Positions 1 to 21,124 of a DNA stretch of 23,906 nucleotides are shown one piece after another. The notes under the pieces were generated by a model that saw only the letters and a list, made by a program, of their open reading frames with translations, made no database searches and was not told the origin of the DNA. Position 1 is the stretch's first letter. Every line of letters starts with the position of its first letter. The stretch comes from a virus. Location of the stretch: positions 1-23,906 of IMG/VR virus record IMGVR_UViG_3300037847_000596. One strand, written 5' to 3'. The position numbers and the translations under genes were made by a program.

Positions 1-165
1 TCTGGTAATTTAGTAATATTTCCGTCAATGATATTTCATGAAACAGGAAAGAACCCAATTGATAAACCTCGTATATCTATATCAGGAGATATCATGATAA
101 CTATGAAAGAAGGTATAAAATCAGAACATAACATACCCTCTCCGTCTACTTGGAAGAAGCTTTAA
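1..165 (+). CDS. 2-oxoglutarate/Fe(II) oxygenase-like protein, C-terminal fragment
   Basis: The first 54 codons of the window are open and end in TAA; the gene begins outside the window. The fragment has the signature of the C-terminal end of 2OG-Fe(II) dioxygenases: a hydrophobic strand leading to FPS, a histidine at fragment residue 13 that fits the distal iron ligand, and, eleven residues later, R24-I-S26, the Arg-x-Ser that binds the C5 carboxylate of 2-oxoglutarate. In phages this fold is found in prolyl-4-hydroxylase-like and nucleic-acid oxygenases. The HxD half of the iron site is not visible, so activity cannot be judged. It lies directly upstream of virion genes and about 2.8 kb before three glycosyltransferases. 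Its substrate is unknown. Confidence 0.7.
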   Translation, partial: SGNLVIFPSMIFHETGKNPIDKPRISISGDIMITMKEGIKSEHNIPSPSTWKKL

Positions 166-183
166 AATGTTGTAAAATGCAGT

Positions 184-2112
184 ATGCCTTTAACAAATGT
201 TCAAATACGACCAGGACTTAACAAATCAGATACACCGTCAGGGGCCGAAGGACAATGGATTGATGGTGATTTTGTAAGATTTAGATATGGTCAACCCGAA
301 AAGATTGGTGGTTTTCAAGCCATAGGTCAGCATACAATTTCTGGTCCTGCAAGAGCACAACACTGTTGGAATGATTTAGAAGGTAGAAAGTATGCAGCAC
401 TTGGTACATCTAAAGCATTATATATTTATTATGAAGATGCATTTTATGACATCACACCTTTAGCAACTGCAATTACAGGAGCTACATTTACATCAACAAA
501 TGGTTCATCAACTGTAACTGTAAATAAAGCATCACACAATTTAAACGTTGGAGAATATGTTACATTTACTTCAGTAAGTTTACCTGGGGGTGGTGCCACA
601 GGTTTTACTGTAGCTAACTTTGAAGATTTTACCTATGAAATTTTAACTGTTCCAAATGCTAATACTTTTACAATTCAAATGAAAACTAATGAGTCGGGAA
701 CAGGAATGACAGCAGCAGGATCTGCAAGTATAAATCCTTATCAAGAAATAGGACCAACAATTCAAACATATGGTTATGGTTGGGGTACAAGCACATGGGG
801 AACTGTAGCATGGGGACAAGGAAGCACATCAACGCAAGTTGTGCTTGATCCAGGATCATGGTCTTTAGATAATTTTGGTCAACAATTAATAGCTACTATT
901 AAAGATGGTAAAACATTTGTTTGGGATGCTGGTGCAGCAAATCCTTTAGATACTAGAGCTACTTTAATGACAGGGGCACCTACTGCTTCTAGATTAACAA
1001 TTGTTTCAGACAGGGATAGACACGTAGTTCATTTTGGAACAGAAACTTCAATAGGAAACACAACAACACAAGACCCAATGTTTATTAGATTTAGTAATCA
1101 AGAAGATTACAATACATACGAACCTACTTCAGTAAATACTGCAGGTACTTTTAGACTTGATACAGGTAACAAAATTGTAGCTGCGGTTTCTGGTAAAGAC
1201 TATAATTTAATTTTAACTGATACTGCTGCATATGTAATGCAGTTTGTAGGTCCACCTTTTACTTTTTCTATAAGACAAGTTGGTTCTAACTGTGGATGTA
1301 TTGGTCAACACGCAGTTGTATATGCAGATGGTCAAGTCTTTTGGATGGGAACTGGCGGAGGATTTTTTAAGTACGATGGAACTGTAAAACTTTTACCTGC
1401 ATTAATAGAAGATTTTGTTTTTACTACTGCAGGAGATAATATTGGTGTTAACTATTCATCTAATGAAATTATCTATGCATCTCATAATTCACTGTTTAAT
1501 GAAATAGTTTGGTTTTATCCTGCTGGTAAACCATTAAATAATCCTGCTACTCAGAATAATAGAAGTGTAGTTTATAATTATGTTGAAAATACTTGGTCAA
1601 TAATGACATTAGCACGAAGCACTTATCATGATGCTTCTACATATGATCTTCCTTATGCAACAGAATACACAACAACAGGAACTCCTACATTTACCAATTT
1701 AAGTGGTGCTACAAATACATTTGGCGCAACTAAATATTTTGCACATGAAACTGGAACAAATATTATAGACTTAGATGGTACTGAAACTCCGATCGCTGCG
1801 TTTATACAATCTGGAGATTTTGATTTACCCACAGACGGCGATGGTCAATTTTTAATGAGAATAAGTAGATTTCTCCCTGATTTCAAAAATCTTCAAGGAA
1901 ATGCAGTAGTAACTATAGGTGTTAAGAATTTTCCAATTGATGCGAATGCGTCATCTCAACTAGGGCCTTTTACAATTAACTCTTCTACACAAAAGATTGA
2001 TACAAGAGCTAGAGGTCGTTTAGCTAATTTAAAAATAGAAAACACTGCAAATGATGAGACATGGAGATTCGGTACTTTTAGAGCAGATGTTAACGTAGAT
2101 GGTAGAAGATAA
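184..2112 (+). CDS. Tail nozzle/hub-like structural protein (T7 gp12 / P22 gp10 type)
   Basis: This 642-residue protein is rich in beta strands, Gly, Thr and aromatic residues, with no signal peptide and no obvious membrane segment. Its plan resembles the podovirus tail tube nozzle (T7 gp12) or hub (P22 gp10). An N-terminal GDFVRFRYGQPEKIGGF segment parallels the 'which entries, what readout' start of those proteins. A propeller-like middle follows, with a DRDRHVVHFG stretch and later YADGQVFWMGTGGGFFKYDG, and the C-terminal domain is strand-rich. It would sit below the portal in the tail and form the DNA exit channel. The assignment rests on architecture and position, not on strong motif identity. 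No convincing Shine-Dalgarno sequence precedes the ATG. The stop overlaps the next start (TAATG). A generic structural beta-propeller protein is the alternative. Confidence 0.6.
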   Translation: MPLTNVQIRPGLNKSDTPSGAEGQWIDGDFVRFRYGQPEKIGGFQAIGQHTISGPARAQHCWNDLEGRKYAALGTSKALYIYYEDAFYDITPLATAITGATFTSTNGSSTVTVNKASHNLNVGEYVTFTSVSLPGGGATGFTVANFEDFTYEILTVPNANTFTIQMKTNESGTGMTAAGSASINPYQEIGPTIQTYGYGWGTSTWGTVAWGQGSTSTQVVLDPGSWSLDNFGQQLIATIKDGKTFVWDAGAANPLDTRATLMTGAPTASRLTIVSDRDRHVVHFGTETSIGNTTTQDPMFIRFSNQEDYNTYEPTSVNTAGTFRLDTGNKIVAAVSGKDYNLILTDTAAYVMQFVGPPFTFSIRQVGSNCGCIGQHAVVYADGQVFWMGTGGGFFKYDGTVKLLPALIEDFVFTTAGDNIGVNYSSNEIIYASHNSLFNEIVWFYPAGKPLNNPATQNNRSVVYNYVENTWSIMTLARSTYHDASTYDLPYATEYTTTGTPTFTNLSGATNTFGATKYFAHETGTNIIDLDGTETPIAAFIQSGDFDLPTDGDGQFLMRISRFLPDFKNLQGNAVVTIGVKNFPIDANASSQLGPFTINSSTQKIDTRARGRLANLKIENTANDETWRFGTFRADVNVDGRR

Positions 2113-2276
2113 TGGCCAAAATAAACGTATACGTTCCTGAACCACCAAAAGAATATACTGAAGAAGGGTTTAGACAAATTAACCAAGCGATAGCTACTGT
2201 TGAAAATCAACTTAACACAACGTATCAACAGGACTTGAAAAATGAACAAGATGCGTTTAATTATTTCATATCATGA
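2112..2276 (+). CDS. Small conserved-type phage protein, 54 aa
   Basis: A complete 54-codon frame fills the gap between its neighbours exactly. Its ATG shares the A of the upstream TAA (TAATG), and its TGA lies inside the ATGA that starts the next gene. That double coupling is strong evidence that it is translated. The product begins MAKINVYVPEPPKEY and then runs as a probable amphipathic helix or short coiled coil (residues 17-52) with many Gln, Asn and Glu. No membrane segment or cysteine is present. The position, between the nozzle-like protein and another small protein, suggests a minor virion or assembly factor. No function is recognised. Confidence 0.75.
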   Translation: MAKINVYVPEPPKEYTEEGFRQINQAIATVENQLNTTYQQDLKNEQDAFNYFIS

Positions 2277-2608
2277 CAATAAGATATAAAAGTGACACAT
2301 TTAATTTAACAACTACTGGTGCAACAACTGTTTTTACTTGTCCAAGTGATGCAACTGCATTAGTTAAATTAGTTCAAGCAACACATAATACTGCTTCTAA
2401 TGTAGATACTGACTTATTATTACAGAAGTCAGGAGGTTCGGACGTTTTAATTTCACATGCTACTTTAAATAAAAATACAACAAACATGTTACAAGAAACA
2501 CTAAGTATGGAAGCAAGTGATGTTTTAAAAATGCAAGCAGGTACAGCTAATGAGATAACAGGTGTTGTAAGTTATGCACTCATAGATAGGTCACAAGAAA
2601 ATGGCTAA
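2273..2608 (+). CDS. Small beta-rich virion-associated protein, 111 aa, function unknown
   Basis: The 111-residue product is rich in Thr, Ala, Ser and Val in alternating patterns that predict a beta-sandwich. An example is the opening MTIRYKSDTFNLTTTG, followed by FTCPSDATALVKLVQ. It has no membrane segment, no Cys pair and no catalytic motif. The profile fits small decoration, adaptor or fibre-base proteins of tailed phages. It overlaps the 54-aa gene upstream (ATGA) and the basic 44-aa gene downstream by 8 bases, so it belongs to the same coupled late operon. The structural role is inferred from composition and location only. Confidence 0.7.
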   Translation: MTIRYKSDTFNLTTTGATTVFTCPSDATALVKLVQATHNTASNVDTDLLLQKSGGSDVLISHATLNKNTTNMLQETLSMEASDVLKMQAGTANEITGVVSYALIDRSQENG

Positions 2609-2735
2609 ACAGAAATTTGTACATTTCGTTCCCCGACCAAAGCCTAGAAAAAGACCTCGTACCCATAAGAAGAGACTTAACAAAAACGAAAAAAGAGACT
2701 ATAAACCTTATAATAGACAAGGAAGAAAACAATGA
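2601..2735 (+). CDS. Very basic Arg/Lys/Pro-rich small protein, 44 aa
   Basis: A complete 44-codon frame starts inside the end of the preceding gene, and its stop overlaps the next start as ATGA. The product is extremely basic, with 10 Lys, 8 Arg and 2 His against only 1 Glu and 1 Asp. A proline-arginine run occupies residues 11-20 and the tail around residues 34-44 is Tyr/Asn/Arg-rich. Such peptides are unfolded alone and bind nucleic acid or acidic surfaces; small basic virion proteins can help condense DNA. Whether this one binds DNA, RNA or a partner protein cannot be read from the sequence. The exact fit between neighbours argues that it is real. Confidence 0.75.
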   Translation: MAKQKFVHFVPRPKPRKRPRTHKKRLNKNEKRDYKPYNRQGRKQ

Positions 2736-2932
2736 GTGATGATTTAATAAGAATACCTGCGAAAGTTAAGGAAATTGTAAAACATAAAAGAACGGGTCAC
2801 ATTTATGATAGCAAAGCTGATTTTGATAATGATGTTGCTGATCCCAATACTGATACTACTGCTGATGATTTTAGGCAAGATCTCGAAATAACAGTTGCAT
2901 CTTTGGAGGTATTTGGTAAAACCAAAGAATGA
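2732..2932 (+). CDS. Small acidic phage protein, 66 aa, function unknown
   Basis: The 66-residue product has a basic N-terminal third (around VKEIVKHKRTGHIYDS) and an acidic middle rich in Asp, Asn and Thr (about residues 30-48), ending in a short strand-helix stretch. No known domain was recognised. It is coupled at both ends: its ATG overlaps the TGA of the basic 44-aa gene and its TGA overlaps the start of the glycosyltransferase gene (ATGA). Its strongly acidic segment directly after a strongly basic protein could reflect a binding pair, which is speculation. It marks the boundary between the small virion-type genes and the glycosyltransferase block. Confidence 0.7.
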   Translation: MSDDLIRIPAKVKEIVKHKRTGHIYDSKADFDNDVADPNTDTTADDFRQDLEITVASLEVFGKTKE

Positions 2933-3858
2933 ACCCGCAAGGTGGAACGGAATTACAGCACGGATTTTTAGATCAATACGCTGATAAAAATTTATTAAAT
3001 CAAGTACAGATTACAACCTCTGTTCCAGAAAAAATTCCTTTACATCCTAGTAAACCAAATATTCTTTGGCAAAAAAATTCATACGATCAACCTAATATAG
3101 CACCTTGGTTCAGCCAAAAAACAAATCATAAAAAATACGATTGGTATGTTTTTAATAGCAACTGGTCTTATGAAAAATTTAGAATGATGTTTGATCTACC
3201 AACTGAAAGATGTCATGTTATTAAAAATGGATGTACCAGTTTTCCGACTAGAAAACCTTATAAGAAAGGTGATCCTATAAGAATCATACATCAAAACACA
3301 CCTTGGAGAGGATTGAGTGTTTTATTAGGTGCAATGCAACTTGTAAAAAATCCATTGATTAAATTAGATGTGTTTAGTTCAACAGAAGTTTACGGTGAAG
3401 AATTTAAAAAAAGAAATGACCATACGTATGTGCCTCTTTATAAACAAGCCTCTGAATTACCTAATGTAAACTACATTGGCTATAAACCTAATTTTTACAT
3501 ATTAGAAAATCTTAATAAATATAACATGTATGTGTACCCGAGTATCTTTGAAGAAACATCATGTATATCTGCAATTGAATGTTTATCAGCAGGACTATAT
3601 TCAATTGTCACAAACTTTGGAGCTTTATATGAAACTTGCGCAGAGTTTCCAATGTATGTAACTTACACAAAAGATTTAAAAATATTATCTCAAACGTTTG
3701 CTACAGCTATTGAAATGGCTGCTCAAACTTTACATGAAACAGCAATACAAGATAGTTTAGACATGCAACAAGATTTTTATAAAAAATATTACAATTGGAA
3801 TAAAAGAGCTTTAGAATGGAATAACTTTTTATATAATGTAATTAATGAAAAAAAGTAA
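2929..3858 (+). CDS. GT4-like (GT-B fold) glycosyltransferase
   Basis: The 309-residue protein has GT4 family landmarks in order. They are GGTE at residues 5-8 (the glycine-rich N-terminal loop), VFNSNW at 74-79, VIKNG at 97-101, the domain-linker W-R-G-L at 126-129, and an E209-x7-E217 pair in FEETSCISAIE, the donor-nucleotide-binding EX7E motif. Such enzymes transfer a sugar from a nucleotide-sugar donor with retention of configuration. The start is fixed near this ATG because an in-frame TAA lies 12 bases upstream; a GGAGG at 2905-2909 is rather far away. The first beta strand usual before GGTE is missing, so the N terminus is shorter than typical GT4 proteins. The acceptor is unknown: virion protein, host glycan and DNA are all possible. 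Confidence 0.8.
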   Translation: MNPQGGTELQHGFLDQYADKNLLNQVQITTSVPEKIPLHPSKPNILWQKNSYDQPNIAPWFSQKTNHKKYDWYVFNSNWSYEKFRMMFDLPTERCHVIKNGCTSFPTRKPYKKGDPIRIIHQNTPWRGLSVLLGAMQLVKNPLIKLDVFSSTEVYGEEFKKRNDHTYVPLYKQASELPNVNYIGYKPNFYILENLNKYNMYVYPSIFEETSCISAIECLSAGLYSIVTNFGALYETCAEFPMYVTYTKDLKILSQTFATAIEMAAQTLHETAIQDSLDMQQDFYKKYYNWNKRALEWNNFLYNVINEKK

Positions 3859-4741
3859 AAACTGGTCTAATAACGATACTTATCAAACTATAAAGGAAAT
3901 AAACGTGTCATCACAAGATCCATCAGAACCAATTTGGTTTAAAGAAAAAACAACATCAGAGTTACTACAAGAAGGATTTAAAGAAGAACAACAAATAAAA
4001 CTTTGTGTAGGGACACCTGTTCATTCAGAAGTATCAATTCATTATACTCAGTGTTTATTAGAGATACAGAAAGATTTTATTAAGAATGGAGATAGTGTGT
4101 CTTTTCTTATGCATAAATCATCACTAATAACTCAAGGTAGAAATCTTACGGTTGCTTCATTTTTAGAAACAGATGCAGATTACTTATTATTTTTAGATTC
4201 TGATATCGCAATTGGTCCGCATGTAATTAGGAAAATGATTGATGCGGATAAAGATGTGATATGCGTACCTTATCCTTTGAAAAGCATACAATGGGGTAAA
4301 CTTAAAGAAAGATTTGAAAGAGGATTAATTAAAACTGAAGCTGATATGGAAACTGGTGTGTGTTCATACCCAGTTAGATTAGAAGATGCAACTAATATTG
4401 TGATGAACAATGGTATAATAGAAATAACTCATGCACCTGCAGGGTGTTTATTAATAAAAAGATCAGTATTTGAAAAACTTATAAAAGCATATCCTGATAG
4501 AAATATAAAACAAAAGTCTGTCATAAATGGTGAATATGAAGAAAAACAACACTACTATAACTTTTTTGATACAGTACACGATAAAGAAACTAAAACTTAC
4601 ATGGGAGAAGATTTTGGTTTTTGTAAACTTTGGAAAGATATAAATGGTAAAATTTTTGCTGTAGTTGATGAGTATATAATGCACGTTGGAGAGCATCAAT
4701 ATATTGGAAGATTCAGAGATGAATTTATAAAACATGATTAA
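3845..4741 (+). CDS. GT-A fold glycosyltransferase, copy 1
   Basis: The 298-residue protein has a Rossmann-like nucleotide-sugar domain. CVGTPVHSEV (residues 54-63) opens the first strand. FLDSD (116-120) supplies the DxD metal-binding motif, and APAGCLLIKR (197-206) and GEDFGFC (254-260) match the acceptor/catalytic region of GT-A enzymes. H280 could be the third metal ligand. An extra N-terminal segment of about 50 residues is absent from the downstream paralogue. It overlaps the GT4-like gene by 14 bases and the next gene by 8 bases, so the three are surely co-translated. The fold call is firm; donor, acceptor and family number are not determinable here. Confidence 0.8.
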   Translation: MKKSKNWSNNDTYQTIKEINVSSQDPSEPIWFKEKTTSELLQEGFKEEQQIKLCVGTPVHSEVSIHYTQCLLEIQKDFIKNGDSVSFLMHKSSLITQGRNLTVASFLETDADYLLFLDSDIAIGPHVIRKMIDADKDVICVPYPLKSIQWGKLKERFERGLIKTEADMETGVCSYPVRLEDATNIVMNNGIIEITHAPAGCLLIKRSVFEKLIKAYPDRNIKQKSVINGEYEEKQHYYNFFDTVHDKETKTYMGEDFGFCKLWKDINGKIFAVVDEYIMHVGEHQYIGRFRDEFIKHD

Positions 4742-5471
4742 ATTATATTTAGCTTCACCTACTACAGGTTTAGTAGATATTCATTACATGCGATCTGTGT
4801 TTTCATTACAAGCAGAGTGTCATAAAAGAAAAGTTGGAATTACTTTACATTTACATAAAAGTTCTATTGTTACTTTTGGTAGGAACGGATGCACTGCAGG
4901 ATTTTTAAGTTCTGACTGTACCCATATGTTGTTTGTAGATACTGATATTCAATTCAATGAACAAGATATTTTTAAAATGGTAGAAGCAGATGAAGAAGTA
5001 ACATTAATACCTTATCCAATGAAATGGATTGATTGGAAAAAAGCTAACGAACAATACAGTAATCATAAAATTCCTGTTAATAAAGGTGGTTTTCATTTTC
5101 CTATGAAAGTAATGAATGAGGATAACTTTGAAAGTGTTAACGGTTGGATGGAGATTAAACGAGGGCCTGCTGGCTGTATGTTAATTAAACGAGAAGCTTT
5201 TGAACGTATGATTAAATACTATCCAGAGCTTAAAGTAAGACAGAATCACCTTATTAATGAAACAACTAAAAACATGGAGCATTCTTATAACTTTTGGGAT
5301 ACAGAATTTAACAAGGAAACTGGTCAAATCATAGGCGAAGACTTTGCTTTCTGTGACCGTTATAGGAAGGCAGGAGGACGTATATTTGCTCTCATAGACT
5401 CTGAAATAACGCATCATGGTAACTATCCTTTTAGAGCTAAGTTCATTGACGAATGCGCTAAAATTGAGTAA
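4734..5471 (+). CDS. GT-A fold glycosyltransferase, copy 2 (paralogue)
   Basis: The 245-residue protein aligns along its whole length with the gene just upstream. The shared elements are HKSSIVTFGRN versus HKSSLITQGRN, DTD (69-71) versus DSD, RGPAGCMLIKRE versus HAPAGCLLIKRS, GEDFAFC (201-207) versus GEDFGFC, and a late histidine pair (H227/H228). It lacks the roughly 50-residue N-terminal extension of copy 1. All metal-binding and acceptor-loop motifs are kept, so both copies should be active, perhaps adding successive sugars or acting on different acceptors. It is the last gene of the coupled block; a 39-bp gap follows before the next gene. Confidence 0.8.
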   Translation: MIKLYLASPTTGLVDIHYMRSVFSLQAECHKRKVGITLHLHKSSIVTFGRNGCTAGFLSSDCTHMLFVDTDIQFNEQDIFKMVEADEEVTLIPYPMKWIDWKKANEQYSNHKIPVNKGGFHFPMKVMNEDNFESVNGWMEIKRGPAGCMLIKREAFERMIKYYPELKVRQNHLINETTKNMEHSYNFWDTEFNKETGQIIGEDFAFCDRYRKAGGRIFALIDSEITHHGNYPFRAKFIDECAKIE

Positions 5472-5510: not shown

Positions 5511-6959
5511 ATGCATCCATTAATGATGGCCGCTTTGATATCAGGAGGTGTCAATGCATTACAAGGTAAAAGAGGATCTGACCTTTTAAAATCTACAATT
5601 AAAGATACAGCTATAGCCGCAGTCTTAGGTGGTGCTAAAATGCCTGGAGGAGACAAAGGTATTTCAACACTAGCTTCAGAAGGTAGTAAACAAGCAGCCA
5701 TGAGCACAACAGGTACGATTGCTGCTAAGTCTCCTTTTGCTGCGGGTCAGGCAGGTGCATTGCAAGCAAGTAGAAAAATGATGTTAGCAAATGCAAACAA
5801 ACCTTTAACCATGGGTCAAAAATTAGAAAAAGCTTTTACTGCAATTGAAAAACCATTTAGAGATCCAAAGACAGGAGATATTTCATCTTTCAGAGTTGGA
5901 TTAGGATCAGCTGGTTTAGGGGGTGCTGCTTATGCTGCAGGATTATTCGACCCTAAAGATCCACCAGATCCAAAGTATCCTGGATTTAATAAATACTACG
6001 CAGCTAATCCTAAAATGTTTCAACCAGGTTCAGGTCAATACGGCCCTGATACAGATCTGTATCCTGAAGGGTCACCTTATTCTGGTTTGCAAGAAGGTGG
6101 TATTGCAGATGTAGAAATGATGTCACCTGACGATGAGATGTTACAGTTTGATATGCAACAACAAGCAATGGAAGACGGACCAGGGATTGTTGGAATTTTA
6201 GAGGAAAGATTTAGAGAAGATTTTATGGCTCCAGATAAAAAAGCAATGAAAGCTTCTATGAGAAGAAAAGATCCAGTGAAAACTGGTAGAGTTCCAGTTT
6301 CAGGAATGTCAACTGCAACTCCAATGATGGCAGAAATTAAAACAATGGTGCCTGAAAGAATTAAAAAAGATTTTATAATGAAGTATAAACAAGATCCTGA
6401 CAAAACAGCTATCGAATACGCAACTATGATGAGAGATAAAGATAGAATTACAATTGCAGATGTTCAAAAAGCAAAAGAGATGTTAGAACAAATGACAAAC
6501 GAAACTGAAATGGAAGTAGGCGAAATAGAAGGTATCTTAGGTCTAACTTCAGATGCTAAAGAAGGAGTAAGAATACCTCAAGCTCCACCTCCACCTGCAC
6601 TTCAAAACATTTTAGATACATTTAGATCTAGAGCAGCTAATGAACCAAGAATGCAAGAGTTCAACAAAGGTGATTTAGTTGATGTATTACCCTCTAAACT
6701 AAAAAGAGATGAGAATGATACATCTAATTATAAAAGAACTTCTGGTAAAATGGTTACTGATGAAACGGGCAAAGGATCAGGGAACAAGGACACTATGCTA
6801 GCTCAGTTAGCAGATGGAGAATTTGTTACAAAAGCTAAATCGGTATTAGGTGCTGGTAAAGCTATGGGTGGTAAAAATAAAGAAGAACAAAGAGAATTAG
6901 GAGCTAAATTTTTCTATACACAAATGAGTGAACTAGAGAAATTAGCAGAAAGTGCATAA
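5511..6959 (+). CDS. Large late-region protein with DGEFV motif, putative virion protein
   Basis: The 482-residue protein has an N-terminal hydrophobic, Ala/Gly-rich stretch (residues 1-45) and a second Gly/Ala-rich hydrophobic patch near 130-145. A Pro/Asp/Gly-rich linker follows, then a helical, charged middle (about 225-350). The C terminus carries MLAQLADGEFVTKAKSVLGAG, with D435-G-E-F-V439. I recall this LADGEFV element, often after a GG-I segment as here (GLQEGGIADVE), from many uncultured marine phage proteins encoded beside ejection or tail genes; its role is not established. The gene has a good AGGAG site and overlaps the next start by one base (TAATG). Position suggests a virion or internal protein. 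No enzyme motif was seen. Confidence 0.6.
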   Translation: MHPLMMAALISGGVNALQGKRGSDLLKSTIKDTAIAAVLGGAKMPGGDKGISTLASEGSKQAAMSTTGTIAAKSPFAAGQAGALQASRKMMLANANKPLTMGQKLEKAFTAIEKPFRDPKTGDISSFRVGLGSAGLGGAAYAAGLFDPKDPPDPKYPGFNKYYAANPKMFQPGSGQYGPDTDLYPEGSPYSGLQEGGIADVEMMSPDDEMLQFDMQQQAMEDGPGIVGILEERFREDFMAPDKKAMKASMRRKDPVKTGRVPVSGMSTATPMMAEIKTMVPERIKKDFIMKYKQDPDKTAIEYATMMRDKDRITIADVQKAKEMLEQMTNETEMEVGEIEGILGLTSDAKEGVRIPQAPPPPALQNILDTFRSRAANEPRMQEFNKGDLVDVLPSKLKRDENDTSNYKRTSGKMVTDETGKGSGNKDTMLAQLADGEFVTKAKSVLGAGKAMGGKNKEEQRELGAKFFYTQMSELEKLAESA

Positions 6960-16645: not shown

Positions 16646-18177
16646 TGCTGGACAAGTTCATAGAGGTCTTTCAAGGACTAGATAGTGCTTATGGAGAGTA
16701 CTTTCTTGAAGGGTCTAAAGATAACAGAACTGGAAAAGAAAAGGGGCGCGCTACGACCAAGCGGGCCCCTGTCACAAAAGAATTATTTCAACAACATTTA
16801 AACGGACAAATTAATTTAGGTGTCATACCTATTCGGGAAGACAACACCTGTTATTGGGGTTGTATTGACGTAGACAAGTATGACCAAGATTTTAGACAAT
16901 TATTAGTAAAAATTAGGGAGAGAAACTATCCTTTGGTGCCATATCGCTCCAAATCGGGCGGTATACACCTATTCTTGCATGTTTTGACCCCAATCCCTGC
17001 ATCTGACATGATCGAAAAATTAGGGGTATTAGCGACCGATCTAGGGCTATCTAACTGTGAGATCTTCCCAAAACAACGTCAAATTAAGGTTCATAAGAAT
17101 GATTTAGGAAATTGGCTAAATATACCGTATCAACAGGCTGTAAGGACTACTCGATACGCACTCAACGACAACGGAACAGGGATCACGATTACTGATTGGT
17201 TTGATTGGATACAACAGTATCGTCTTACAACAGAGAAATTTTATGCAATCCAAGTGCATGATCAACATATTGCGGAAGAAGGCTTTGACCAGTACCCGCC
17301 GTGTCTTCAAGCCTTAATTCGTAATGGTTGTGAAGGTGGTTATCGTAATAATGCTTTAACTGCCTTTGCGACCTTAGCGAAAAAGAAAAGTCCAGATGGT
17401 TGGCAGAAAGAAGTGTGGGACCGAAACGAAGAGTTTAACGAACCTTTACCAAAACATGAAGTGCAAGGACTTATAAAACAATACGAAAAAAAAGATTACG
17501 CATATAAATGCTCTGACTTACCTATGAAAAATCATTGTAATGCAGAGTTATGTAAAACATTGAAGTTCGGAATTGATACTGCTGCGTACGTGCCAAAGGT
17601 AGATTCCTTCCAGAGATTAAAAACAAGTCCGCCCATTTATTATCTTACAATTGAAAAGAAAACTATAGAACTATCTGGTAAGCAATGTAATCAACAACAG
17701 TTGTTTGCAGAAGCTTTATTTGACCAGGCGGATATAGTCTGGCAAAAATTAAAAGACAGAGATTTTAGACAATTCTTAATGACTCTTAAAACCATGCAAC
17801 AAGATATAGAGGGATACGATGAAGAGTCCGAAGCACAAGAAGAGTTTAAAGATATGATGATACAGTTTACACAAGAAACACAACAAGCAGAAAACTCATC
17901 ACAGGTTGAAGCAGACATGTGGTATTTGTTTGATGACAAGGTGGTATTTAAATATAAAACATTTGAAAGGTTTGTTAAGAAATCTAACAAAGCTGTGAAA
18001 AAATATGAGCTAATTAATTTTCTTAAAAAGAATGGTGCAATTAAAAAAGATTACTTCGATAAGATCAAAATTAAAAATATCTGGTATTGTCCAAAATTTA
18101 TAGAACCAGTTATTGAAAGATCTACAAATATATTTAAAAAAGATAAGAAAGCAGAGTTTGATGAAAAGACGACTTAA
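16645..18177 (+). CDS. Archaeo-eukaryotic-type DNA primase with C-terminal four-cysteine domain
   Basis: The 510-residue protein begins with an AEP catalytic domain. It shows the metal-binding D75-V-D77 in CIDVDKYD, the nucleotide-binding S102-K-S-G-G-I-H108, a third acidic site E139-IFPKQ, and GNWLNIPY (155-162), the set typical of TOTE-type and related AEP primases. A second domain has C220 in a PPC motif, then C289, C298 and C303; this spacing resembles the iron-sulfur C-terminal domain of the large primase subunit PriL, or a zinc site. The last 170 residues are helical with a winged-helix-like end. It would make primers for the family A polymerase encoded 3.5 kb downstream. No helicase domain is fused. 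The first half is GC-richer with non-AGA arginine codons. Confidence 0.82.
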   Translation: MLDKFIEVFQGLDSAYGEYFLEGSKDNRTGKEKGRATTKRAPVTKELFQQHLNGQINLGVIPIREDNTCYWGCIDVDKYDQDFRQLLVKIRERNYPLVPYRSKSGGIHLFLHVLTPIPASDMIEKLGVLATDLGLSNCEIFPKQRQIKVHKNDLGNWLNIPYQQAVRTTRYALNDNGTGITITDWFDWIQQYRLTTEKFYAIQVHDQHIAEEGFDQYPPCLQALIRNGCEGGYRNNALTAFATLAKKKSPDGWQKEVWDRNEEFNEPLPKHEVQGLIKQYEKKDYAYKCSDLPMKNHCNAELCKTLKFGIDTAAYVPKVDSFQRLKTSPPIYYLTIEKKTIELSGKQCNQQQLFAEALFDQADIVWQKLKDRDFRQFLMTLKTMQQDIEGYDEESEAQEEFKDMMIQFTQETQQAENSSQVEADMWYLFDDKVVFKYKTFERFVKKSNKAVKKYELINFLKKNGAIKKDYFDKIKIKNIWYCPKFIEPVIERSTNIFKKDKKAEFDEKTT

Positions 18178-18748
18178 AGTATTAATTGCATGCGAGTATT
18201 CGGGTACAGTAAGAGATGCATTTACGAAAAAAGGACACTATGCTGTGAGTTGTGATATAATTCCTACAGAATCACCTGGAGAACATATACAAGATGATGT
18301 TTTAAATCATTTGCATAAAGGTTGGGATTTAATTATCGCTCATCCACCCTGTACTTATTTATCTAATGCAGGTGCAAGACATTTATATCCTAAAGGTAAA
18401 CTGAATGAAATAAGGTATAAAAAAGGATTAGAGGCTAAAAAATTTTTTATGTGTTTTTATAATATGGATTGTAAAGTTGCGGTTGAAAATCCAATACCAT
18501 CAACTGTTTTTGAATTACCAAAATATGATCAAATTATCCAACCATATGAATATGGACATCCTTTTCAAAAAAAGACTTGTTTGTGGTTAAAAAATTTACC
18601 AAAATTAAAACCTACAAATATTGTAACAGAAAGGGAAAGCACAAAAATACCTGGTAATTGGTACAACAAGGGTGGTAAAGAAAGACAAAAAAACAGAGCT
18701 AGATTTTTTAAAGGGATAGCTGAAGCGATGGCGAATCAATGGGGTTAG
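18161..18748 (+). CDS. Compact cytosine-5 DNA methyltransferase-like protein
   Basis: Starting at the ATG at 18161 gives 195 residues. Another in-frame ATG at 18113 would deepen the overlap with the primase and add only a charged leader, so the later start is preferred. The fold looks like a minimal Rossmann methyltransferase: LIACEYSGTVRDAF (8-21) as the SAM-binding motif I, D32 after the second strand, HPPC64TYLSNAG as the catalytic loop and VENP (108-111) like the ENV motif of C5 enzymes. The usual PCQ is PCT here and no separate target-recognition domain fits in this length. It could be a real small methylase, or a related base-modifying enzyme. It overlaps the helicase gene by 10 bases. 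Confidence 0.65.
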   Translation: MKRRLKVLIACEYSGTVRDAFTKKGHYAVSCDIIPTESPGEHIQDDVLNHLHKGWDLIIAHPPCTYLSNAGARHLYPKGKLNEIRYKKGLEAKKFFMCFYNMDCKVAVENPIPSTVFELPKYDQIIQPYEYGHPFQKKTCLWLKNLPKLKPTNIVTERESTKIPGNWYNKGGKERQKNRARFFKGIAEAMANQWG

Positions 18749-20304
18749 AAAATAAAACTATTAAAATATACGGTCCACCTGGGACAGGTAAGACTACAAC
18801 TTTGTTAAATAAATTAGATAAATTATTTGCAAGAGGTGTTATGCCTTCAGACATTGCTTATTTATCTTTTACAAACAAAGCGGTAAATGAAGCAAAGCAT
18901 AGAGCTGAGAAAAAATTTAAAAAACTTACTGATGAAGATCTAAAAAACTTTAGAACCATACATAGTTTTTGTAGACAGAACTTTAAAACAAAACCTGTCA
19001 TAGACCCTGAGATAGATATGGTAGAATTTGCACAAGTGTTAGGATTACCTAAACTGCAGTTTGAGAAATACAACGGTCAACGTGTTTGGAACGATTGGTC
19101 TTTGAGAGTATATGATAAAGCAAGAAACATGCTTAAACATCCAGACGATGCATACAAAGAAGAAAGAATTAAACGTGTGGTGTTTGCAAAATACAGATTA
19201 ATTATAGATGCTTATGAGGAATTTAAAGAAGATCATAGAGTAGATTTTACAGATATGATTGAGGAGTACATAGAGAACGGTGTACCGCCAAGACTTAAAG
19301 TTTTAATTGTAGATGAAGCTCAAGACTTAACACCTTTACAATGGAAACTAATTTATAAATTAGCTGAGTTTAGCCAAAAGATATTTTTAGCAGGAGATGA
19401 TGACCAGGCGATCTATGAATGGAATGGTGCAAATGTAGAAGAGTTTAATGAGTTTCCAGGTAGAGACTATGTGTTAAGAAAATCATACAGAATTCCTTCA
19501 GATATACACGACTACTCACAATACATTGCAAGTTACATTCATGGTAGAAAACGTAAAGAATTCATACCGCAACAGAATGTAGGTAGCATAAATACTTACA
19601 ATAGATTGAAAGATATACCATTCAGCGAACACGGATCATGGATCATGTTAGGGAGGACTAATGAAATAGTAGATGAACTTAGAATGAAAGCAAGAGAAAT
19701 GGGTTTATTCTTTCAAGACTCAAAAGGTAGAAAATCATTTGATTTAAACAAATGGAAAGCAATACAAATTTGGTTACGTTTGATGAAAGGCGAGAGTGTA
19801 GATAGAGAAGAAGTTCAGATTATATACACATACATAAACGAAATAGGATTTGGTTGGCGAAACATAGAATCTAAACGATGGTACAACATACATAGCAGCC
19901 AAGAACTTAACTATGATTTTTTAAATGTTTGGTGTGGTCTGGGGTCATTGAGAAAACCATGGACAGAAGTATTTAACAGAAACTTCCCAGAAAAAGAAAA
20001 GTTTTATTTCGAAAAACTTATTGATTCTGGCATAGATATTGTTAAAAATTCAGAGATGATAATTGATACGATACATTCGATCAAAGGTGGCGAAGCTGAT
20101 AACGTTGTGATTTATGAAAAATCTAATTGGATTGCCTCAATACAAAATAAAGTTGGTTTAGATAGAAGCTCAGAATACAGGGTATGGTATGTGGGTGTGA
20201 CTAGAGCAAAACAAAATATTCATATATTAAGAAGTGTTAGTGAATATTATTTTCCATTATCTAGAATGTTAAATGAAGTAAGGAGAGTTAAACATGTCAG
20301 TTGA
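18739..20304 (+). CDS. UvrD/Rep-type superfamily 1 DNA helicase
   Basis: The 521-residue protein has a complete SF1A motif series. Walker A GPPGTGKTT is at residues 12-20, motif Ia FTNKAVNEA at 44-52, and motif Ic TIHSFC at 73-78. Motif II is DEAQD at 192-196, motif III GDDDQAIYEW at 219-228, and motif IV LRKSYRIP at 246-253. Motif V is TIHSIKGGEAD at 444-454 and motif VI YVGVTRAK at 484-491. It is shorter than E. coli UvrD (720 residues), with reduced 1B/2B insertions, closer in size to phage Dda. It would unwind DNA 3' to 5' or displace proteins during replication. Coupling to the methylase-like gene upstream and to the next gene (11-base overlap) places it in the replication operon. Confidence 0.9.
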   Translation: MGLENKTIKIYGPPGTGKTTTLLNKLDKLFARGVMPSDIAYLSFTNKAVNEAKHRAEKKFKKLTDEDLKNFRTIHSFCRQNFKTKPVIDPEIDMVEFAQVLGLPKLQFEKYNGQRVWNDWSLRVYDKARNMLKHPDDAYKEERIKRVVFAKYRLIIDAYEEFKEDHRVDFTDMIEEYIENGVPPRLKVLIVDEAQDLTPLQWKLIYKLAEFSQKIFLAGDDDQAIYEWNGANVEEFNEFPGRDYVLRKSYRIPSDIHDYSQYIASYIHGRKRKEFIPQQNVGSINTYNRLKDIPFSEHGSWIMLGRTNEIVDELRMKAREMGLFFQDSKGRKSFDLNKWKAIQIWLRLMKGESVDREEVQIIYTYINEIGFGWRNIESKRWYNIHSSQELNYDFLNVWCGLGSLRKPWTEVFNRNFPEKEKFYFEKLIDSGIDIVKNSEMIIDTIHSIKGGEADNVVIYEKSNWIASIQNKVGLDRSSEYRVWYVGVTRAKQNIHILRSVSEYYFPLSRMLNEVRRVKHVS

Positions 20305-21124
20305 TTTAAGAATATTATCGTTAGGTGCAGGAGTACAAAGTTCAACACTTGCATTGATGATAGAAAAAGGTGAAATACCTATGGTAGACTATGCTTTATT
20401 TTCAGACACTGGGTCCGAACCTGCGAAAGTATATGAGTGGTTAGAGTGGTTGACTAAACAATTGTCATATCCAGTAAATATTGTTTCTGCTGGGTCATTA
20501 AAAGAAGGTATGATTAAGTCGAACGAAGGAACATATGTCAGAGGTTCTACAGTACCGATGTATGTAAGACATAAGGTGACTGGTAAGAAAGGTATACTTA
20601 GACGTATGTGTACCGCAACATATAAAATAGAACCTGTCACTAAGGAGATAAGAAGGTTACTTGGTGTGGGCTATAAACAAAGAGTTCCAAAAGATAAAAA
20701 AGTGCAACAAATATTTGGTATATCAAAGGATGAAGCTGTTCGAATGCGGGTATCTCAATATCATTATATAGATTTTGAATATCCATTAATTGATAAAATG
20801 ATGTCTAGAGCCGATTGTATTAAATGGATGAAAGATAATAACTTTCCTGAACCACCTAGATCTGCTTGCACGTTCTGTCCATATCATTCTGATGAAGAAT
20901 GGTTACGTATAAAAACAGAAACACCTGATGAGTTTGAGGAAGTGGTACAGTTAGATAAAAAACTAAGAACAGGTTTTAAAGGATGTAAGCCTGAAGAAAA
21001 TAATTATTATTTACACAGATCTGGTAAACCATTATCTGAAGTTGATTTTACAAAGAAAGATGATAAACAAGGAGATCTATTAGAAGGTATGGACATGGAG
21101 TGTGAAGGAATGTGTGGAGTGTAA
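20294..21124 (+). CDS. PAPS reductase-like ATP pyrophosphatase (DndC-type superfamily)
   Basis: The 276-residue protein opens with LSLGAGVQSS (8-17), the PP-loop of the adenine nucleotide alpha hydrolase family, followed by FSDTGSEPAKVYEWL (36-50), the standard second motif. C106 (RRMCTATYKIEP) and the CTFC pair at 192-195 are typical for the phage branch of phosphoadenosine-phosphosulfate reductase-like proteins. A further C270-x3-C274 sits at the extreme C terminus, so four or five cysteines could bind an iron-sulfur cluster. Real PAPS reduction is unlikely to be needed in this operon; related enzymes use the same chemistry to adenylate or sulfurate nucleic acids (DndC). Actual substrate is unknown. 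Confidence 0.75.
   Translation: MSVDLRILSLGAGVQSSTLALMIEKGEIPMVDYALFSDTGSEPAKVYEWLEWLTKQLSYPVNIVSAGSLKEGMIKSNEGTYVRGSTVPMYVRHKVTGKKGILRRMCTATYKIEPVTKEIRRLLGVGYKQRVPKDKKVQQIFGISKDEAVRMRVSQYHYIDFEYPLIDKMMSRADCIKWMKDNNFPEPPRSACTFCPYHSDEEWLRIKTETPDEFEEVVQLDKKLRTGFKGCKPEENNYYLHRSGKPLSEVDFTKKDDKQGDLLEGMDMECEGMCGV
21116..21119 (+). promoter_or_regulatory. Ribosome binding site supporting the start at 21126
   Basis: GGAG lies six bases before the ATG at 21126. The alternative upstream ATG at 21102 has no such site and would extend the protein backwards into the preceding gene, so 21126 is chosen. Confidence 0.5.

What the first reader, a model, noticed from the sequence alone, without database searches (positions are those of the whole stretch)
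1..5471. Oxygenase plus three glycosyltransferases within the virion genes: possible virion-modification cassette
Seen: a 2OG-Fe(II) oxygenase-like C terminus at the left edge, then a nozzle-like gene, four small genes and three glycosyltransferases (one GT-B, two GT-A), all co-directional and mostly overlapping. Known: 2OG oxygenases hydroxylate Pro or Lys in proteins, and collagen-like and giant-virus systems glycosylate hydroxylysine. Inferred: the set could hydroxylate and then glycosylate a virion protein, for example the Pro/Lys/Arg-rich 44-aa product or a fibre. DNA glucosylation is less likely because no hydroxymethyl-pyrimidine gene is in the window. This is the best candidate here for an undescribed system.
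Basis: partly seen in the sequence, partly recalled or inferred. Interest (0 to 1): 0.6.

Follow-up and report, generated by a model that had tools for sequence, protein, structure and literature searches.

The report
Sugar-adding genes in SAR11 phage virions
An ocean phage of SAR11 bacteria carries two or three sugar-attaching enzymes among its virion genes, probably to coat one of its own particle proteins with sugar; the oxygenase next to them looks like a separate partner of a tail-fibre gene, not part of one cassette.

Summary
Observation confirmed. The window is a fragment of an HTVC023P-type Pelagibacter phage. At 1-5471 lie the C terminus of a 2OG oxygenase (PF13759), a P22 gp10-like nozzle gene, four small genes, a GT-B and two paralogous GT-A enzymes (phrog_1574), overlapping, under purifying selection, catalytic motifs intact.

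Interpretation partly supported. The glycosyltransferase (GT) block and the oxygenase are independent. In nozzle-fetched loci the block is present in 31/31, 31/31 and 0/24 of three lineages, while a nearby 2OG oxygenase is equally common with it (29/33) and without it (9/10). The oxygenase tracks a glycine-rich fibre gene (P=2e-6, uncorrected for relatedness). The 44-aa peptide occurs in unrelated SAR11 phages.

The GT-A family is closest to STIV A197, proposed to glycosylate a capsid protein. In 21/21 testable distant P22-like contigs it directly follows the coat gene. Against this, its closest relatives lie in replication modules, near TET/JBP genes in two phages, so DNA glycosylation is a live rival; complete HTVC023P and HTVC027P lack the base-hydroxylating families tested. 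Best reading: virion-protein glycosylation, about 50%.

The parts
1..165 (+). C-terminal 54 aa of a 2OG-Fe(II) oxygenase (orthologue of HTVC023P gp71); part of a separate, variable fibre-oxygenase unit
184..2112 (+). virion structural protein, P22 gp10-like (nozzle / stabilization protein)
   Evidence: phrog_3287 7e-84; 90.5% identical to HTVC023P gp72; relatives annotated 'stabilization protein'
2112..2276 (+). small conserved protein, 54 aa
   Evidence: phrog_32936 3.8e-14; present in GT+ and GT- lineages
2273..2608 (+). small conserved protein, 111 aa, fastest evolving of the set
   Evidence: phrog_1276 4.6e-5; dN/dS 0.57
2601..2735 (+). 44-aa basic peptide shared by unrelated pelagiphages
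   Evidence: phrog_17967; 75-84% identical in HTVC010P, HTVC019P, HTVC168P and others, no GT annotated nearby
2732..2932 (+). small acidic protein, 66 aa; homologues also in the GT- lineage
2929..3858 (+). GT-B glycosyltransferase, E(x7)E motif intact
   Evidence: PF00534, phrog_2170; E209/E217 invariant in 18 homologues
3845..4741 (+). GT-A glycosyltransferase 1 (phrog_1574)
   Evidence: DxD D118/D120, GED 254-256 and H280 invariant in 28 homologues; model Z 17.6 to STIV A197
4734..5471 (+). GT-A glycosyltransferase 2, tandem paralogue of the first
   Evidence: phrog_1574 9e-33; second GT-A in 24 of 92 loci of this lineage
5511..6959 (+). downstream virion/ejection-type gene that bounds the GT block
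   Evidence: conserved neighbour in GT+ loci; no family match

Best explanation
A virion-gene operon of an HTVC023P-type SAR11 podovirus carries an inserted block GT-B, GT-A1 (and here GT-A2) that builds a short glycan on a phage virion protein (coat, nozzle-associated or fibre protein) in the host cytoplasm before or during assembly, using host nucleotide sugars. A GT-A would transfer the first sugar to a side chain, and the others would extend or branch it. The 2OG oxygenase at the left edge is a separate unit that travels with a glycine-rich tail-fibre gene and probably hydroxylates that fibre or another protein; it is not required by the GTs. Shown here: gene identity, intact catalytic motifs, purifying selection, presence or absence of the GTs as a block, independence from the oxygenase, coat-gene linkage of distant GT-A relatives, fold. 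Inferred: acceptor, sugar, order of action, the fibre as oxygenase substrate.
For: Position: between nozzle-associated and ejection-type genes, overlapping and on the same strand, in 31/31 and 31/31 nozzle-fetched loci of two lineages, 0/24 in a third. GT-A family: only PDB sequence match is STIV A197 (E=0.003), also the top structural match (Z 17.6, 2.5 A over 164 residues); next are LH3, mimivirus R699, Mnn9, COLGALT1. A197 is essential and proposed to glycosylate the glycosylated STIV capsid protein (PMC10551542). 21/21 testable distant GT-A contigs (15 clusters at 80% identity) have GT-A directly after a P22-like coat gene (PF11651), in the order terminase-portal-scaffold-coat-GT-A-adaptor-closure; two annotated genomes agree. 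GT-A plus GT-B lie between large LamG/Kelch-type genes in marine virus AG-345-L05, and GT-A beside collar-fibre genes in cyanophage ACG-2014f. No PF00303 or PF12851 in complete HTVC023P and HTVC027P.
Against: The pelagiphage GT-A clade is closer to a replication-module clade (T4-like alphaproteobacterial phages, with TET/JBP in two) than to the coat-linked clade, and GT-B co-occurs with GT-A in those phages. HTVC027P has a second GT-A between primase and helicase. The window block is not beside the coat gene. No acceptor site, glycan or mass shift is known. GT-A folds are common, and a shared fold shows no function.
Confidence: 0.5

Rival explanations
1. The GTs glycosylate hydroxylated bases in phage DNA, as in TET/JBP-plus-GT or T4-type hypermodification.
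For: The GT-A family lies between gp46 and the sliding clamp in Cr30, phiM12, DLP6 and OC. Cr30 and DLP6 have PF12851 Tet_JBP genes about 5 and 1 kb away, and in DLP6 the gene before it is a sugar-type nucleotidyltransferase. GT-B homologues co-occur in these genomes. The tree places pelagiphage GT-A nearer this clade. HTVC027P has a GT-A copy in its replication module. Some related clades carry thymidine hypermodification genes (PMC9599517).
Against: No TS-fold hydroxymethylase (PF00303) or Tet_JBP in complete HTVC023P and HTVC027P, and no PF00303 in seven long GT+ contigs. The GT block is in the virion module, not the replication module. Only one of over 100 SAR11 genomes is reported to encode restriction-modification (PMC7029224).
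Confidence: 0.22
2. The GTs modify host envelope glycans (LPS) during infection to block superinfection or loss of progeny to used receptors.
For: Usual reading for marine phage GTs (PMC7029224). GT-B has weak matches to exopolysaccharide and LPS GT models.
Against: No flippase or polyprenol-type Gtr genes among the neighbours; HTVC027P, a relative with the same block, is called lytic (PMC12753301); the block is embedded in virion genes and distant GT-A relatives adjoin coat genes.
Confidence: 0.13
3. One reading: the oxygenase hydroxylates a virion protein and the GTs then glycosylate the new hydroxyl, as with collagen hydroxylysine.
For: The GT-A model resembles LH3, R699 and COLGALT1 and the oxygenase model resembles prolyl hydroxylases. 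Marine virus AG-345-L05 has GT-A, GT-B, 2OG-like and sulfotransferase genes interleaved with large fibre-like genes.
Against: Oxygenase and GT presence are independent (Fisher P=1); oxygenase family and strand vary; four GT-A+GT-B myoviruses have no PF13759 or PF13640 match; no collagen-like proteins seen; AlkB matches the oxygenase model almost as well.
Confidence: 0.1

Closest known systems
STIV A197 (GT-A glycosyltransferase of an archaeal virus)
   Same: Nearest sequence-profile and structure match in the PDB; soluble minimal GT-A fold; proposed to glycosylate a viral capsid protein
   Different: Very remote (E=0.003); virus of archaea, unrelated to tailed phages; no GT-B partner tested here
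Mycobacteriophage virion glycosylation (Freeman et al. 2023, cited through PMC12619734)
   Same: Phage-encoded GTs modify capsid and tail-tube proteins
   Different: No mycobacteriophage among the named hits of the GT-A and GT-B queries; the paper itself is not held here
HTVC023P-type pelagiphage AMGs (Wittmers et al. 2022, PMC9599517)
   Same: Already reports three GTs and eight non-orthologous 2OG oxygenases in this phage group
   Different: In the passages read: no assignment to virion modification, no test of linkage, no GT-A family context
TET/JBP plus GT DNA hypermodification in phages
   Same: Homologous GT-A and GT-B families occur in Cr30 and DLP6, which have Tet_JBP genes
   Different: No Tet_JBP or TS-fold enzyme found in HTVC023P or HTVC027P; block lies in virion genes
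Mimivirus R699 / human LH3 / COLGALT1 collagen glycosylation
   Same: GT-A fold similarity to GT-A1
   Different: 12-14% identity; no collagen-like substrate seen; oxygenase not coupled

Membership tests
phrog_1574 GT-A glycosyltransferases | profile match over nearly full length | tested here: met
   1.3e-28 and 9e-33
phrog_1574 GT-A glycosyltransferases | GT-A fold with DxD and ED residues | tested here: met
GT-B (GT4-like) glycosyltransferases | PF00534 match and E(x7)E motif | tested here: met
PF13759 2OG-Fe(II) oxygenase | profile match and conserved metal-site residues (HxH...H...R) | tested here: met
   full-length orthologue 1e-15; H113, H115, H184, R195 invariant; the window itself holds only the C terminus
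Fixed oxygenase-GT virion-modification cassette | oxygenase and GTs co-occur more than chance | tested here: not met
   29/33 versus 9/10, P=1
Phage virion-protein glycosylation system | GT family genetically linked to virion protein genes | tested here: met
   window position; coat adjacency 21/21 in distant relatives; but replication-module relatives exist
Phage virion-protein glycosylation system | glycan on a virion protein | not testable with these tools
   needs mass spectrometry
TET/JBP or T4-type DNA glycosylation | base-hydroxylating enzyme (PF12851 or PF00303) in the same genome | tested here: not met
   absent in complete HTVC023P and HTVC027P; the window's own genome is incomplete
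TET/JBP or T4-type DNA glycosylation | glycosylated bases in virion DNA | not testable with these tools
   needs nucleoside LC-MS
Collagen hydroxylysine glycosylation | Gly-X-Y collagen-like substrate | tested here: inconclusive
   5 of about 20,000 ORFs have 8 or more GXY units, all glycine-rich runs; mostly contig fragments

The most novel reading that the evidence does not exclude
SAR11 and other marine phages use interchangeable fibre- or coat-linked modification units (2OG oxygenases, sulfotransferases, A197-like GT-A and GT-B enzymes) to decorate their own virions, so that the most abundant ocean phages are chemically modified particles.
Probability: 0.2. Interest if true: 0.72.

Novelty: new variant of a known kind. 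Interest (0 to 1): 0.47.

Why it matters
[quoted passage not shown] If they glycosylate their virions, surface chemistry, adsorption and decay of a large share of marine virus particles would need rethinking. The work also gives function leads for phrog_1574, a family labelled 'unknown function': an A197-like GT-A enzyme that is coat-linked in P22-like phages and replication-linked elsewhere, near TET/JBP genes in two cases. Which target each clade uses is directly testable with two cultured phages, HTVC023P and HTVC027P.

Tried and rejected
(1) 44-aa peptide as acceptor: rejected, conserved in unrelated pelagiphages with no GT annotated nearby. (2) 66-aa protein as GT-specific partner: first looked so, rejected when the GT- lineage protein proved homologous. 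(3) Window methyltransferase-like gene 18113-18745 (phrog_757) as part of a 5mC-oxidation-glycosylation route: no homologue in GT+ isolates and only one weak, stop-interrupted match among seven long contigs. (4) Ser/Thr-rich coat C termini in GT-A-linked P22-like phages: none obvious. (5) Search with the L068 GT-A for more loci gave only its own copies. (6) Transcriptome timing of HTVC027P GTs: not found in the main text. (7) DLP6 restriction data: the paper's sentence is incomplete, so not used. (8) No paper found linking cyanophage 2OG oxygenases to fibre hydroxylation with the terms used. (9) The first co-occurrence table mixed GT-fetched loci; recounted on nozzle-fetched loci only.
Full report
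What is there. The window is a 23,906-base linear IMG/VR viral record. Its nearest isolate is Pelagibacter phage HTVC023P (nozzle protein 90.5% identical). The left-edge ORF is the end of a PF13759 oxygenase; its full-length orthologue is HTVC023P gp71. The two GT-A genes are tandem paralogues of phrog_1574, a family of unknown function in PHROGs. HTVC023P has one GT-A; 24 of 92 contigs of the window's lineage have two.

The enzymes look active. In 28 GT-A homologues the DxD aspartates, the GED motif and a C-terminal His are invariant. In 18 GT-B homologues the E(x7)E motif is invariant. In 15 oxygenase homologues HxH...H...R is invariant. Median dN/dS is 0.24, 0.13, 0.085 and 0.155 for GT-B, GT-A1, GT-A2 and oxygenase.

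One cassette or two units? I annotated 330 contigs that carry the nozzle gene and then recounted only those fetched with nozzle queries, which are unbiased for GTs. The block GT-B plus GT-A is present in 31/31 loci of the window lineage, 31/31 of the HTVC027P lineage and 0/24 of the 023Pt_psg01 lineage. A 2OG oxygenase lies within 4 kb upstream of the nozzle in 29/33 GT+ loci and 9/10 GT- loci (P=1). In the HTVC027P lineage the oxygenases are of other families and mostly on the opposite strand. The oxygenase directly before the nozzle goes with the Gly-rich fibre gene gp70: 36 of 39 loci with it have gp70, 2 of 52 without it do (P=2e-19); in the nozzle-fetched subset 32/32 versus 2/9 (P=2e-6). 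Related contigs are not independent, so these P values overstate the case. Contig G005 (60 kb) has GT genes but no PF13759, PF13640, phrog_61 or phrog_81 match; its upstream slot holds a Gly-rich ORF. Its GTs are broken by frame shifts, as is its 111-aa gene, so it is weak evidence alone. G009 (49 kb) has open GT frames and no phrog_61 or phrog_81 match, but may be incomplete. The four complete T4-like genomes Cr30, phiM12, I1_18 and OC have no PF13759 and no PF13640 match, although they encode both GT families. Conclusion: oxygenase and GTs are separate units.

What the GT-A family does elsewhere. The only PDB sequence match of the family profile is STIV A197. The AlphaFold model of GT-A1 (mean pLDDT 82) matches A197 best (Z 17.6), then human LH3 residues 293-519 (Z 17.0), mimivirus R699 (15.2), Mnn9 (14.9) and COLGALT1 (14.8). 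R699 is a biochemically shown collagen glucosyltransferase (PMC9546862). A197 is essential and may glycosylate the STIV capsid protein (PMC10551542). Fold similarity alone does not prove a protein acceptor. Distant relatives (24-27% identity) were examined: in all 21 contigs with upstream sequence the GT-A gene directly follows a P22-like coat gene (15 clusters at 80% identity, coat proteins down to 33% identity). Annotated genomes ctkAd229 and ctTUS972 repeat the coat-to-adaptor position. In cyanophage ACG-2014f it lies among collar-fibre genes. In marine virus AG-345-L05 GT-A and GT-B are adjacent, between large LamG/Kelch-type genes, with 2OG-like and sulfotransferase genes.

The opposing evidence. 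In Cr30, phiM12, DLP6 and OC the GT-A gene sits between recombination endonuclease and sliding-clamp genes; in ctz7E20, ctah5458 and LS06 it is also near DNA genes. Cr30 and DLP6 carry Tet_JBP genes, labelled SNF2 in the records, about 5 and 1 kb away. The tree gives three groups (coat-linked, replication-linked, pelagiphage), with the pelagiphage group on the replication side of a supported branch (the root is only a midpoint). HTVC027P has a second copy between primase and helicase that groups within the pelagiphage clade. So the family probably has more than one kind of target. For the window's copy the virion position and the absence of PF00303 and PF12851 in both complete isolates favour a virion protein; I put this at 0.5, DNA at 0.22, host surface at 0.13 and the coupled cassette at 0.1.

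Comparison with the literature. Wittmers et al. 2022 (PMC9599517) already list three GTs and eight 2OG oxygenase groups in HTVC023P-type phages, so the genes are not new. I found no report of the coat-adjacent GT-A family, of the fibre-oxygenase link, or of virion glycosylation in these phages, within the few searches made of the open-access library. Virion glycosylation by phage GTs is known in mycobacteriophages (as summarised in PMC12619734), so this would be a new variant of a known kind.

Noticed in passing
window 2601-2735: A 44-aa basic peptide (core THKKRLNKNEKRDYKPYNRQGR) is 75-84% identical in unrelated SAR11 podoviruses (HTVC010P, HTVC019P-type), near lysis or terminase genes there; function unknown.
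   Followed up: partly
L228 12892-14220; L232 3398-4744: Genes labelled 'SNF2 DNA repair' in Caulobacter phage Cr30 and Stenotrophomonas phage DLP6 are Tet_JBP (PF12851) dioxygenases; in DLP6 the preceding gene is a nucleotidyltransferase.
   Followed up: partly
L416 56-14711 (MH319754.1): Marine virus AG-345-L05 has an island of large LamG/Kelch-type genes interleaved with sulfotransferases, 2OG-like genes, GT-A and GT-B.
   Followed up: partly
L408 3493-4200 (HTVC027P gp05): A second phrog_1574 GT-A copy lies between primase and helicase; in the window that slot holds a phrog_757 methyltransferase-like gene (18113-18745) with no Pfam match.
   Followed up: partly
window 2273-2608: The 111-aa protein evolves fastest of the set (dN/dS 0.57), as an exposed virion protein might.
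   Followed up: no
window 20294-21124: PAPS-reductase-like gene (phrog_424, 1.8e-45) in the replication module; possible role in DNA or nucleotide thio-chemistry not examined.
   Followed up: no
L409 143-1144 (contig G005): GT-B and GT-A are broken by frame shifts in one 60-kb contig, from assembly errors or decay.
   Followed up: no
window 1-165 and its orthologues (alignment A2): The PF13759 oxygenases aligned have an invariant His-x-His...His where 2OG oxygenases usually have His-x-Asp/Glu...His; the aligned PDB chain 3bvc shows His-x-His too.
   Followed up: no
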